DNA from: Actinomycetes bacterium
Lineage (GTDB): Bacteria; Actinomycetota; Thermoleophilia; Gaiellales; F1-60-MAGs149
Reading direction: 5' to 3'
Assembly (NCBI GenBank): GCA_025360225.1
Contig: JANYCN010000031.1
Span: 1-43,723 of the forward strand
Length of the DNA: 43,723 nt
Shown here: positions 23,871 through 28,297 of the stretch, in pieces
Layout: each line of letters starts with the position of its first letter
Numbering within the stretch: the stretch's first letter is position 1
Made by a program: the position numbers and the translations under genes
The notes under the pieces: generated by a model
What the model saw: the letters and a program-made list of their open reading frames with translations, nothing else
Databases searched by the model: none
Told to the model about the DNA's origin: nothing

Positions 23871-24276
23871 TGTGCTCCGCAACCTGGCGGTCGGCCTCGT
23901 CACCGAGTCCGAGAACGTCGAGCAGCTCGTCGGCGCGCAGCCTGACCGCCGCTGGTGGCAGGCGCCGCATCTGGCCGAGGAACAGGAGCAGCTCGCGCGC
24001 TGTCAGACGATCGAGCAGGACCGGCTCCGCCGGCACGAAGCCGAGCACGCGGCGGGCCTCGAGCGTGTTTGCGACGACGTCCAGGCTGCCGACCTCGGCC
24101 GTCCCGGCGTCCGGTCGCGAGAGCGTCGCGAGCATCCGGATCAGGGTGGTCTTGCCGGCGCCGTTCGGTCCGGCGATGCCGAAGAAGGAGCCCTCAGGCA
24201 CCTCGAGGTCGAGCCCATCGACCGCGATCGTCGCGCCGAAGCGCTTCTGCAGTGACACCGCCTTGACGGCCGCCAT
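23866..24276 (-). pseudogene. 5' part of an ABC-2 exporter ATPase gene
   Basis: ATG24276 begins a normal ABC ATPase: Walker A GPNGAGKTT (36-44), then the Q-loop region and LGLGDEADRQVAEHS near 122-136. Just where the signature motif should follow, homology stops. The frame turns into out-of-frame permease sequence, so signature, Walker B and H-loop are absent. I infer one deletion that removed the ATPase 3' half and the permease 5' half, fusing the remainders out of frame near 23,870. The frame stays open for 431 codons, but the tail is not a real domain. Confidence 0.75.
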
Positions 24277-24340
24277 GGTGAAAGGCTACTCGCGCCGCCG
24301 CGCGTCGCTCGATTGGCGGTCGAGCTGGCAGACTGCGCTG

Positions 24341-25381
24341 GTGCGCGCACGCGACATGGGCATCGTCATCGGTCGCCTTTCGCCGGGTGCGGCGAACGCG
24401 ATCACGGACGTCGCCGGCGTGGGCGTCGCTCACGCGAACGCGCATCCCGATCACTGTGGCGTGACGGTGGTCGTCCCAGGGATCGACCGAGACTGTTGGC
24501 TCGAGCCGTTTCCCGTTGGCGCAGCGCGACTGAACGGCGCGGCCGAGGTTGCCGGCATCACGCAGGTCGACGAGTGGGGGATCGGCGAGACGCCGATCTT
24601 CCTCACGGCGACACCGTACGTCGGCGCCGTGTACGACGCGGCGACCGCGGAACTCGGCGCTCGTCAGCCGAGGATCGGGCGCGACGACGTGGTGATCCCG
24701 CTCGTCGCAGAGTGCAACCCGAACGCCGTCTGCGACGTCCGTGATGGACCGGTCCCCGACCGGGCGCTGGTCGACCGCGTGCTCCGGACGGCCGCCGCTG
24801 GCCCGGTCGCCGAAGGACAGGTCGGCGCCGGGGTCGGCATGAACTGCTTCGACTGGGCGGGCGGCATCGGGACGTCGTCGCGGCGTGTTGGAGCCTGGAC
24901 GGTCGGCGTCCTGCTGCTCGTGAACTTCGGCGACGCCGAGGAGCTCCGCGTCGCTGGCGAGCCCGTCGGCCGCACCCGGATCCCGCCGACGCGCGGGTCT
25001 GAGGGCTCGTGCGTGTGCGTCGTCGCGACCGATGCGCCGCTGCTCGGCGCACAGCTCGAGCGTCTCGCTCGTCGCGCCTTCCTCGGCCTTGCGCGTGCGG
25101 GCTCGTACGCCTCGGACGGCTCGGGTGAGGTCGCGCTCGCCTTCTCTACGGCAAATCGAGACGCCCTTGCGCGCGACCGGTCGGGCGACGTCCTCCGCCT
25201 GGACGTGCTCACGGGCAGCGCCCTCAACCCGCTGTTCCTGGCGACCGTCGATGCGGCGGAGGAGGCGGTCCTGAACGCGCTGTACGGCGCCCGGACGATC
25301 GTCGGCGCGAACGGAACGCTCGCCGCCTACGCGGACGGGTTGGTCGCTGAGGGCAGCTCGCCACCCCGTCAGCGAGGGTAG
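24341..25381 (+). CDS. P1 family peptidase (DmpA / L-aminopeptidase D-esterase-like)
   Basis: A 346-residue self-processing N-terminal-nucleophile enzyme of peptidase family S58, acting on short peptides, beta-peptides or D-amino acid amides and esters. The N-terminal ITDVAGVGVAHA motif, the VAECNPN segment and VNFG (Asn195, oxyanion) match. Cleavage is expected before Ser223 in SEGSCVCVVATDAPLL, which frees the nucleophile. The end (RLDVLTGSALNPLFLATVDAAEEAVLNAL) is typical. There is no signal peptide, so it is cytoplasmic. GTG24341 is chosen because CAGACT, a weak -10, lies 6 nt upstream; ATG24356 is the alternative. It could break down peptides brought in by the importer. Confidence 0.88.
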   Translation: MRARDMGIVIGRLSPGAANAITDVAGVGVAHANAHPDHCGVTVVVPGIDRDCWLEPFPVGAARLNGAAEVAGITQVDEWGIGETPIFLTATPYVGAVYDAATAELGARQPRIGRDDVVIPLVAECNPNAVCDVRDGPVPDRALVDRVLRTAAAGPVAEGQVGAGVGMNCFDWAGGIGTSSRRVGAWTVGVLLLVNFGDAEELRVAGEPVGRTRIPPTRGSEGSCVCVVATDAPLLGAQLERLARRAFLGLARAGSYASDGSGEVALAFSTANRDALARDRSGDVLRLDVLTGSALNPLFLATVDAAEEAVLNALYGARTIVGANGTLAAYADGLVAEGSSPPRQRG

Positions 25382-25488: not shown

Positions 25489-25492
25489 GACC

Positions 25493-25549
25493 AGCGCAGG
25501 ACGATCCAGGCAGTCGGATGACCACGCTATCTCACCGTCAGACCACTAG
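25493..25549 (+). repeat. Dispersed repeat, copy B
   Basis: This 57-bp copy opens AGCGCAGGACGATCCAGGC and ends GTCAGACCACTAG. It matches copy C (28241-28297) at 47 of 57 positions by direct count, and shares TGACCA and CAGACCACTAG with copy A. The minus-strand small ORF ends in the TAG contained in this copy's CTAG. Confidence 0.75.
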
Positions 25550-25686: not shown

Positions 25687-25768
25687 CGCTCCGGGGGTGT
25701 TCGGGACGGACGCCGAGCGTCCTGCCCACCGCATCGACCATCCCGCGCCGAGACTTGAGCCTGCCGTG

Positions 25769-25780: not shown

Positions 25781-28198
25781 ATGCGCCGACTGCTCCCCGT
25801 GCTCGCGATGGGCACCGCTTTTGCCATAACCGCTGCCGCGAACGGTGCCGCGACGAAGCCACCGCCGCCGATCGCCGTGGCGCAGAACGTGCTGCAGCCC
25901 GGTCAGAGCGGCGACCCCTCGAGCGCGCACTTCGCCGACCAGTTGCCGCTCTATCGCTCGTGGACGTTCAAGCCGATGCCGCTCACCGCGCCGGCGAACG
26001 CCATCGTCGAGACGCCCAGGGCAGGCACGACGATCGCCCGCGATACGTGGGGCGTGCCGTACGTGGCGGCCGCGACGGACGCGAACGCTGCTTTCGGCGT
26101 CGGTTTCGCGGAGGCCGAGGACCGGTTCTTTGAGATGGACGTGCTGCGCCACCAGGTCGAGGGGCGGCTCGCTGAGCTGATTCCCCCTTCGCAGCAGACG
26201 CTCGCCGAACGCGCTGCGACGATCGACGGCGACGCCACTAACCGCACCGCCGACCAGACCGACGCCAACCTTCTCGCGCAGCTCGCGAAGCGCCCGCTGG
26301 CCGAGCGCCAGATGCTCCAGGCGTTCGTCGATGGCATCAACGGCTGGCGCGCTGATCGCGTCAAGAACGGCGGGCTGCCGGTCGAGTATCTCCTCCTGGG
26401 ACGGCCAGACGCCTGGCGCATGGTTGACACCCTGCACATTGCCGCCTACATCGCCCGCAACTTCGGTCAGGCCGGCGGGCAGGAGCTCCGCGACGCCGAG
26501 ATGCTTCGAGCGCTCCGCGCTGCCTTCCCGCTGGCGCGGGCGAACGCGTACTTCGACGACGTTGCGTGGGTAACCGACCCGGCCGCGCCGACGACGATCC
26601 CCAGCTCGGCCCGCTTCTTCACGTATCCGACCGGGGGGACGAGCGGCGTCACGGGGCGGGGGGTCGCCATTCCTGATGCTGCCCCGCGGCCTGCGGCGCC
26701 CCGCGCAGGCATATCGGGGCCGTACATCGCTGGGCTGCGCCACCTCGCGTCGAACGCGATCGTCGTGTCCGGTGCGCTGAGCGTGACGGGAAACAACCTG
26801 CTGCTCGGCGGGCCGCAGGTCGGACAGTACGACCCGCAGATCCTCCTCGAGGTCGCGATCAACGGCAAGACGGTGCACGCGCGCGGCGCGACCTTCCCCG
26901 GCATCGGGCCGTTCGTGCTGATCGGGCGCACGGTAAGCCACGCCTGGACGTTCACCACCGGGGCCGACGACCAGTCTGACACCTGGGCGAACCTCGTCAA
27001 CCCGAAGAACGCCGCGCAGTACCGCTTCAATGGCAAGTGGGAGACGTTCTCGACGCGGACCGAGGTGATCTCGGCGCGCAACGCGACCGGCACCCTTGAC
27101 GTCGTGCGCACGCTCCACCTGCGCTACGCCGGGCATCATCACGGGCTCGTCCGATCGACCGGTACGGTCGCCAAGCAGAAGGTCGCGTTCTCGACCGGCT
27201 CGTCGTTCCAGTCGCACGAGCTGGACGTGGTCGGGGCGATCCTCGCGCTCAACCGCGAGACGACGTTCGCCCCGATCCTTGCGGCGCTCCCGACCTTCCC
27301 GGCCGGGTTCAACCTGCTCTACGGCGATCCGACGCGCATCGCCTACTACCACCTTGGCTGGTACCCGTTACGGGCGGCTGACAGCGACGCGCGCCTGCCG
27401 GCGTGGGGGAACGGCCAACACGAGTGGACGGGTCGGATCCCCTTCGCCCAGATGCCGTCGATCGTCAACCCGGCGCAGGGCTGGCTCGCGAACTGGAACA
27501 ACAAGCCCGAGGCCGGCTGGCTTGACGGCGACTCGACGCCGTGGGGAGGTGCGCAGCGGGTGCAGATGCTGCAGGACCAGCTCGCCGGCGCGCACGCGAT
27601 GAGCCTGACGAAGCTCCGCCGTGTTGCGCAGAACGCCGCCTACCTCGACGGTCGTGTTCGCCCGTTCCGTCCGCTCATCCTCGACGCCGTCGAGCGCTCG
27701 ACAAGCGTGCCGGTGCAGGGTGCCGCGGACGTGCTCGCGAGCTGGGACGGCATGCGGATCGACCGCGACGGCGACGGCAAGGTCGACTCTGGCGGCGTCG
27801 CGATCCTTGATGGCTGGTGGCTGCACGTGCAGCAGGACCTCCTACGAACGACGCTTGGCAAGCCGGCCTTCGACCTCGCCGGTGACTCGACGTTCGACCG
27901 CGAGTTCTGGGGCTCCGACCGCGCGAGCCTGCTCCTGCACGTGCTGCGTGGCTCCGCCTCGTCCGTCTCCTTGAAGGGTGTCTGGCCTGCTGGTGCGCCG
28001 CTGCGGGCGATCGTCCTGAAGGCCTTCACCGAGACGATGGCCGACCTGAAGGCGCAGTACGGCACGGCAGATCCGGCGAGGTGGCTCGAGCCGGTCGACC
28101 ACCTCTCATACACGTCGTTCTCGACGCTCGTGACGCCGCCCTCCGACGTTCCGTACATGAACCGCGGCACCTACAACCAGCTGATCGAGCTCGGCTAG
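25781..28198 (+). CDS. Secreted penicillin acylase family protein (Ntn hydrolase)
   Basis: An 805-residue exported acylase that should self-cleave into A and B chains and hydrolyse an amide such as an acyl-homoserine lactone, a beta-lactam side chain or an acylated peptide. The signal peptide spans about residues 1-24. The A-chain motif is IARDTWGVPYVAAATDANAA with EAEDRFFEMD (about 85-120). The nucleophile is Ser324 in HLASNAIVVSG, followed by LLLGGPQVG. The C-terminal NRGTYNQLIELG ends abruptly at TAG. Residues 35-66 (NVLQPGQSGDPSSAHFADQL, then LYRSWTFKPM) resemble the tail that I recall coming after NRGTYNQ in other members; see findings. ATG25781 fits both the signal peptide and the leaderless promoter. 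Confidence 0.9.
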   Translation: MRRLLPVLAMGTAFAITAAANGAATKPPPPIAVAQNVLQPGQSGDPSSAHFADQLPLYRSWTFKPMPLTAPANAIVETPRAGTTIARDTWGVPYVAAATDANAAFGVGFAEAEDRFFEMDVLRHQVEGRLAELIPPSQQTLAERAATIDGDATNRTADQTDANLLAQLAKRPLAERQMLQAFVDGINGWRADRVKNGGLPVEYLLLGRPDAWRMVDTLHIAAYIARNFGQAGGQELRDAEMLRALRAAFPLARANAYFDDVAWVTDPAAPTTIPSSARFFTYPTGGTSGVTGRGVAIPDAAPRPAAPRAGISGPYIAGLRHLASNAIVVSGALSVTGNNLLLGGPQVGQYDPQILLEVAINGKTVHARGATFPGIGPFVLIGRTVSHAWTFTTGADDQSDTWANLVNPKNAAQYRFNGKWETFSTRTEVISARNATGTLDVVRTLHLRYAGHHHGLVRSTGTVAKQKVAFSTGSSFQSHELDVVGAILALNRETTFAPILAALPTFPAGFNLLYGDPTRIAYYHLGWYPLRAADSDARLPAWGNGQHEWTGRIPFAQMPSIVNPAQGWLANWNNKPEAGWLDGDSTPWGGAQRVQMLQDQLAGAHAMSLTKLRRVAQNAAYLDGRVRPFRPLILDAVERSTSVPVQGAADVLASWDGMRIDRDGDGKVDSGGVAILDGWWLHVQQDLLRTTLGKPAFDLAGDSTFDREFWGSDRASLLLHVLRGSASSVSLKGVWPAGAPLRAIVLKAFTETMADLKAQYGTADPARWLEPVDHLSYTSFSTLVTPPSDVPYMNRGTYNQLIELG

Positions 28199-28243
28199 TG
28201 GTGTGATTGTCAACTCGCGGCGTCGTCGGGTGTCCGGAGCAGC
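28195..28243 (-). repeat. Dispersed repeat, inverted copy E
   Basis: Read on the plus strand it begins CTAGTGGTGTGATTGTCAA, the reverse complement of the copy A end with one mismatch, and continues into GTCGTCGGGTGTCCGGAGC, which matches the flank of copy A. Its CTAG holds the TAG stop of the acylase gene (28196-28198). It sits head to head with copy C. Confidence 0.7.
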
Positions 28244-28297
28244 GCAGGACGATCCAGGCGCGCGAGTGACCACGCTATTTGACCATCAGACCACTGA
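28241..28297 (+). repeat. Dispersed repeat, copy C
   Basis: It opens AGCGCAGGACGATCCAGGC like copy B and ends ATCAGACCACTGA. Together with inverted copy E it makes a 103-bp inverted-repeat element (28195-28297) whose ends can pair at about 15 of 19 positions. Beyond it, 28298-28364 is non-coding and I see nothing certain there. Confidence 0.75.

What the first reader, a model, noticed from the sequence alone, without database searches (positions are those of the whole stretch)
25781..28198. Acylase looks circularly permuted at its tail
In many penicillin acylases, as I recall them, the C-terminus continues after NRGTYNQ into a tail of the type LPPGQSG, then HFxDQLPLY, then FKPM. Here the protein stops 6 residues after NRGTYNQ, while NVLQPGQSGDPSSAHFADQL and LYRSWTFKPM stand at residues 35-66, between signal peptide and A-chain. 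Moving that segment from tail to head is what a circular permutation would do. Some actinobacterial members also have an LPPGxxG segment at the head, so the change may be ancestral to a subfamily.
Basis: partly seen in the sequence, partly recalled or inferred. Interest (0 to 1): 0.58.

Follow-up and report, generated by a model that had tools for sequence, protein, structure and literature searches.

The report
Naturally circularly permuted penicillin acylase
This bacterial penicillin-acylase-like enzyme carries at its front the short piece that its relatives carry at their back end, a natural rearrangement shared by a large group of actinobacterial enzymes and much like a layout that protein engineers have built by hand.

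Summary
ORF 25781-28198 (+) encodes an 805-residue, apparently secreted PF01804 acylase. Its body matches PF01804 positions 3-585 and then the chain ends. Positions 634-671, which normally follow, lie at residues 34-71, before the A chain. That head alone hits PF01804 above Pfam's cut-off. An HMM trained only on 28 C-terminal tails of standard-order acylases scores it 49.6 bits. Among PDB sequence matches, the head runs on into the A chain only in engineered permuted acylases: 7reo/7rep and cpPvdQ 5ubk. A predicted head+A-chain model overlays cpPvdQ across that junction (194 residues, 3.1 A). The new ends lie in the loop between the last body strand and the tail.

It is not peculiar to this gene. 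Of 131 complete acylase ORFs, 52 carry the segment only at the head, 58 only at the tail, none at both. In a phylum sample, 36 of 298 genomes hold a head-bearing match. The window protein keeps a very tail-like head. Whether the rearrangement happened once or several times is unresolved. I found no report of it in the open-access library.

The parts
25781..28198 (+). whole acylase gene, 805 aa (ATG start; an in-frame GTG start at 25697 would add 28 residues in front of the signal peptide)
   Evidence: PF01804 381.2 bits, E 1.9e-113
25781..25849 (+). likely signal peptide, residues 1-23
   Evidence: sequence shows basic start, hydrophobic stretch, small residues; no signal-peptide program was run
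25880..25987 (+). permuted head, residues 34-69 (AQNVLQPGQSGDPSSAHFADQLPLYRSWTFKPMPLT): the family's C-terminal tail moved to the front
   Evidence: PF01804 634-671 from this segment alone, E 3.3e-7; DNA 25880-25990 as a separate match; tail HMM 49.6 bits; 25 of 36 residues identical to the C-terminal tail of L108
25988..26023 (+). junction linking the head to the A chain, residues 70-81; in the engineered single-chain PGA 7rep the same join is about 9 residues longer
   Evidence: alignment
26024..26635 (+). A (alpha) chain, about residues 82-285
   Evidence: PDB alpha-chain alignments
26636..26749 (+). spacer, about residues 286-323; limits inferred
   Evidence: lies between the end of the alpha-chain alignments and the catalytic serine
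26750..28195 (+). B (beta) chain, residues 324-805, starting at the nucleophile Ser324; Gln346, Asn573 and Arg593 match PGA GlnB23, AsnB241, ArgB263
   Evidence: alignment to E. coli PGA and eight others; roles of these residues are recalled
28160..28195 (+). new C-terminus NRGTYNQLIELG (residues 794-805): last body strand, after which relatives continue into the tail
   Evidence: chain ends at the residue aligned to PGA B 473-474; predicted strand

Best explanation
The gene encodes a secreted, self-cleaving N-acyl amide hydrolase of the penicillin G acylase type whose chain is naturally circularly permuted. The last ~36 residues of the usual B chain (a strand, the PGQSG turn and a short helix, with DQLxLYxxWxxKP) have been moved to the front, between signal peptide and A chain. 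The old C- and N-termini are fused, and the new ends lie in the loop between the last body strand (NRGTYNQLIEL) and the first tail strand (AQNVLQPG). After autoproteolysis before Ser324 the moved piece would stay on the A chain but fill the same place in the fold, so the enzyme should mature and work as usual, with a longer alpha and a shorter beta chain. Shown: order, homology of head and tail, conserved catalytic residues, distribution. Predicted: the fold. Inferred: secretion, cleavage, activity.
For: Head alone hits PF01804 634-671 above the curated cut-off; body hits 3-585. Tail HMM: 49.6 bits, shuffles at most 7.9; best hit inside acylase bodies 2.7. Profile-profile: heads of permuted group I against PGA tails 99.3%, score 95; group II 97.4%, score 59.7; column-shuffled heads at most 18.3 and 15.2. 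Contiguous sequence match of residues 33-283 to 498-753 of 7rep/7reo and of 34-189 to 494-655 of 5ubk. Head+A model aligns across the junction of 5ubk at rmsd 3.1. Whole model ends at PGA B residue 473-474 of Bacillus-type chains of about 525 modelled residues. Standard-order L108 has MNRGTYNQ...AQNVISPGQSGDASSPHFSDQLTLYSTWTYKPM at its C-terminus.
Against: No coordinates could be superposed, so the place of the head in the whole enzyme is predicted, not measured. Head confidence in the models is moderate (block means of pLDDT 51-77 for mature residues 1-40). The 7rep/7reo structural alignments have rmsd near 14. Some cephalosporin-acylase precursors in the whole-model list have aligned ranges starting at model residue 2-3; a range gives only its ends, so this cannot be interpreted. 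Taken alone, heads of most other permuted members are weak: of seven other heads scanned, only one touched the Pfam tail, at E 0.33. No activity or maturation data exist.
Confidence: 0.93

Rival explanations
1. One ancestral permutation in Actinomycetota: every head-bearing acylase descends from it, and the window protein is an early branch that kept the most tail-like head.
For: Body trees place the window protein as sister of the big permuted group II (SH-aLRT 88; bootstrap 90 / SH-aLRT 84). A single clade of all permuted rows is not rejected: p-AU 0.5 (57 rows) and 0.088 (39 rows).
Against: Both best trees need two changes of order, and 0% of 200 bootstrap trees need only one.
Confidence: 0.45
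2. The same cut happened more than once (group I, the L139/L141 lineage, group II), perhaps separately again in the window protein from an L108/L136-like ancestor.
For: Two changes on the best trees. The window head is closer to the standard tails of L108 (25/36) and L136 (25/39) than to any permuted head compared. Grouping it with those is not rejected: p-AU 0.07 (L108 alone) and 0.135 (both).
Against: The best trees join the window protein to group II; the head may simply be conserved.
Confidence: 0.45
3. The head is an unrelated Gly/Pro-rich N-terminal segment, or an artefact of assembly or gene calling.
For: The segment is short and many permuted heads are weak singly.
Against: Pfam and HMM scores with shuffle controls. 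The same layout occurs in many genomes, among them records titled complete chromosomes of Paraconexibacter antarcticus and Conexibacter sp. DBS9H8.
Confidence: 0.02

Closest known systems
Penicillin G acylase, e.g. Bacillaceae 8brq-8brt and E. coli 1gk9/1pnk (PF01804)
   Same: Body 324-804 aligns to B chain 1-473 (211.8 bits in 8brr); catalytic Ser, Gln, Asn, Arg conserved; predicted fold
   Different: In PGA the PGQ-G...DQLxLY...KP segment follows the last strand at the B-chain C-terminus (8brr_B 482-517); here it precedes the A chain
Engineered single-chain Kluyvera PGA, 7reo/7rep
   Same: B-chain tail directly joined to the A chain: window residues 33-283 align contiguously to chain 498-753
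   Different: Man-made; there the whole B chain precedes A, here only the last ~36 residues do, so the nucleophile stays internal in the precursor
Engineered circularly permuted PvdQ, 5ubk/5ubl
   Same: Tail-to-A junction, matched in sequence and in predicted structure
   Different: Man-made, AHL-acylase branch, different cut
Standard-order actinobacterial acylases L108 and L136
   Same: L108 has the highest body identity of the nine compared (36%); near-identical segment (25/36, 25/39)
   Different: Segment at the C-terminus

Membership tests
PF01804 Penicil_amidase | score over Pfam's gathering cut-off | tested here: met
   381.2 bits against 21.3
PF01804 Penicil_amidase | profile positions in colinear order, C-terminal positions ~586-675 after the B body (usual layout; Pfam itself asks only for the score) | tested here: not met
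   positions 634-671 lie at residues 34-71, before positions 3-585
Penicillin G acylase-type Ntn hydrolase | Ser at B1 with Gln B23, Asn B241, Arg B263 (roles recalled) | tested here: met
   S324, Q346, N573, R593
Penicillin G acylase-type Ntn hydrolase | autoproteolysis and amide-bond hydrolysis | not testable with these tools
   needs expressed protein
Circular permutation | N-terminal segment homologous to relatives' C-terminal segment | tested here: met
Circular permutation | segment absent from its old place and the rest colinear | tested here: met
Circular permutation | moved segment in the same place of the fold | tested here: inconclusive
   head+A model overlays engineered permutant 5ubk at 3.1 A over 194 residues, but no coordinates of the full enzyme could be superposed and 7rep gave rmsd 13.9
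PvdQ (NF051460) | score over NCBIfam cut-off 950 | tested here: not met
   56.7 bits

The most novel reading that the evidence does not exclude
Actinobacteria have cut and re-joined the penicillin acylase chain at the same loop more than once, so the tail is a module that can sit at either end of the gene, and a large permuted subfamily has remained undescribed.
Probability: 0.45. Interest if true: 0.62.

Novelty: new variant of a known kind. Interest (0 to 1): 0.52.

Why it matters
Natural circular permutations test which chain connections a fold needs. This one is in a much-used industrial enzyme family, and engineers have made a related layout on purpose (7reo/7rep, cpPvdQ). A widespread natural version shows that evolution tolerates the tail-to-A-chain join with the nucleophile still internal, supplies ready-made permuted enzymes and shorter junctions to borrow, and gives a pair (window protein or group II against L108/L136) for asking how the order of synthesis affects folding and self-cleavage. 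It also means that tools assuming colinear PF01804 domains may call these proteins truncated.

Tried and rejected
Considered and rejected: chance similarity and assembly or gene-calling artefact (see rivals). Considered and left open: one or several origins. Tried without result: genome-contig search with the window protein alone, 7 stretches matched a pattern but none encoded a relative; tblastn of the head plus A-chain start against plasmids, no match. Order outside Actinomycetota is therefore only lightly sampled: of eight acylases fetched from plasmid records (L128-L135: three Proteobacteria, three Archaea, one Deinococcota, one Streptomycetaceae) none gave a head hit (L129 is a broken gene). 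Literature: ten searches of the held open-access library. The listings showed no report of a natural permutation in this family; I saw listings and abstract starts only, plus term passages of PMC5474475 (0 hits for 'permut') and PMC4434042 (both terms only in its reference list). Subscription journals were not searchable. I recall, from no call, a 2004 Protein Science paper on an engineered permuted single-chain PGA.

Limits of the counts: searches used loci chosen as best matches to my queries, so the ratio of orders is not a population estimate. The 28 training tails come from among the tail-bearing proteins, so their own tail hits are by construction (one training locus, L129, fell into the no-A class). 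Fifteen open-ended ORFs were dropped. Of its 18 'neither' ORFs, three are pieces of broken genes and fifteen are group II-like proteins without a tail whose heads score under 5 bits. In one search three runs printed errors (among the group II shuffles), so that control rests on slightly fewer than 60. One search scored at most three candidates per genome and its list was cut, so 36 of 298 is a lower bound, counted by eye from the listed rows (matches starting at profile position 9 or less).

Full report
WHAT IS THERE. The ORF at 25781-28198 (+) reads through to an 805-residue protein that belongs to PF01804 with 381.2 bits. The best Pfam stretch covers residues 84-779 and profile positions 3-585 of 675. 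The own-genome search lists a second, separate match upstream: DNA 25880-25990 against positions 634-670. Cut out on its own, the 51-residue head matches PF01804 634-671 at E 3.3e-7, above the curated cut-off. The piece that ends the family profile therefore stands before the piece that begins it. The own genome also holds a second PF01804 gene in standard order, G000:C49:50890-53055, positions 1-674.

HOMOLOGY OF HEAD AND TAIL. phmmer against the PDB gives, for Bacillaceae penicillin G acylase 8brr_B, a main domain (query 324-804 to chain 1-473) and a weak second one (query 36-66 to chain 482-517, 8.0 bits). The break therefore falls in the short stretch 474-481 between the last body strand and the tail. 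A profile HMM built from 28 tails of standard-order proteins, with no permuted protein in it, scores the window head 49.6 bits. The excised head scores 56.5 bits against at most 7.9 for 4381 scored shuffles, and the best hit anywhere inside acylase bodies is 2.7 bits. Profile-profile comparison extends this to the other permuted proteins: group I heads against PGA-type tails 99.3% (score 95), group II heads 97.4% (score 59.7), column-shuffled controls at most 18.3 and 15.2. The nearest standard tails are those of L108 and L136, with 25 of 36 and 25 of 39 residues identical; the bodies are 35-36% identical.

STRUCTURE. An AlphaFold2 model of the mature protein with 16 aligned rows has mean pLDDT 74.2 and pTM 0.80. 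It predicts a strand at mature residues 7-14 (head), a helix at 31-36 and a last strand at 774-780. Structural comparison aligns its B part to PGA B chains from residue 1 to 473-474 in the Bacillus-type chains and to 489 in most E. coli-type chains, where the model's chain ends and the PGA tail begins. For the head itself I used a model of head plus A chain (37 rows, mean pLDDT 80.5). Ordinary PGA and PvdQ alpha chains align to it only from residue 51-57. The engineered circularly permuted PvdQ 5ubk aligns from residue 4 (194 residues, rmsd 3.1, Z 12.9) and single-chain PGA 7rep from residue 2 (247 residues, Z 15.3, but rmsd 13.9). Sequence says the same: window residues 33-283 align in one piece to 498-753 of 7rep/7reo, and 34-189 to 494-655 of 5ubk. 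The head thus stands to the A chain as the tail does in permutants built by engineers.

HOW IT PROBABLY WORKS. Ser324 opens the B chain; Gln346, Asn573 and Arg593 align with GlnB23, AsnB241 and ArgB263 of E. coli PGA (their roles are recalled). A working Ntn hydrolase is therefore expected. The precursor would be exported, fold with the head strand beside the C-terminal strand, and cut itself before Ser324, leaving the old tail on the alpha chain. Export, strand pairing, cleavage, activity and substrate are inferred; nothing here was measured.

HOW WIDESPREAD. Of 131 distinct complete acylase ORFs collected, at a 5-bit threshold 52 have the segment only at the head, 58 only at the tail, 0 at both, 18 neither and 3 could not be placed. 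Fifteen of the 18 are group II-like proteins without a tail, most ending in NRPTFQQ-, NRPSGIQQ- or RGTYHQ-type motifs, whose heads score under threshold; three are pieces of broken genes. In a sample of 298 Actinomycetota genomes, 117 have a match to a profile that includes the head, and 36 hold at least one match that covers the head positions (my count of the listed rows, a lower bound); the other listed rows start at profile position 60 or later. A search of genome contigs with permuted members found 335 relatives, of which the best 80 were kept. All are titled as Actinomycetota groups (Solirubrobacterales, Thermoleophilia, Streptomyces, Amycolatopsis and others) except one titled only 'bacterium'. 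In those 80 loci, 75 of 81 ORFs contain head and C-terminal end, 6 are partial, and 0 carry a tail. The window's genome is in the class Thermoleophilia, inferred because L035, from a genome labelled same class, is identical to the Paraconexibacter antarcticus protein.

ORIGIN. On bodies with head and tail removed, permuted proteins form two or three groups. The window protein is sister to the large group II (SH-aLRT 88 in a 57-row tree; bootstrap 90 and SH-aLRT 84 in a 39-row tree). Best trees need two changes of order; a single permuted clade is not rejected (p-AU 0.5; 0.088), and neither is grouping the window protein with L108 (0.07) or with L108 and L136 (0.135). One or several events remain possible.

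NOVELTY. It is a member of a known family in a rearranged order. Engineered permutants exist in the PDB. Ten searches of the open-access library listed no paper on a natural permutation of this family; subscription journals were out of reach, so an existing description cannot be excluded.

Noticed in passing
25489-25547, 28237-28295, 111-138: A repeat flanks the acylase gene on both sides in the same orientation (85% identical), with a weaker third copy. The own-genome search lists 41 matches, many 80-160 bases from contig starts; copies align over roughly 160 bases and most end in CAGACCACTAG. It looks like a dispersed, perhaps mobile, element.
   Followed up: partly
24203-25378 (+): The gene upstream encodes a peptidase of family S58 (289 bits), by recall also a self-processing hydrolase family; a functional link is untested.
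   Followed up: no
L129 1075-3674 (Haladaptatus halobius plasmid): A standard-order haloarchaeal acylase is split into two annotated genes within the spacer between A and B chains, beside a run of C; a frame break, sequencing error or natural two-gene enzyme.
   Followed up: partly
L136 and L019: Two standard-order actinobacterial acylases continue after the tail into repeats that look like cell-wall-binding (L136) and S-layer-like (L019) domains; names recalled from the look of the sequence, not searched.
   Followed up: no
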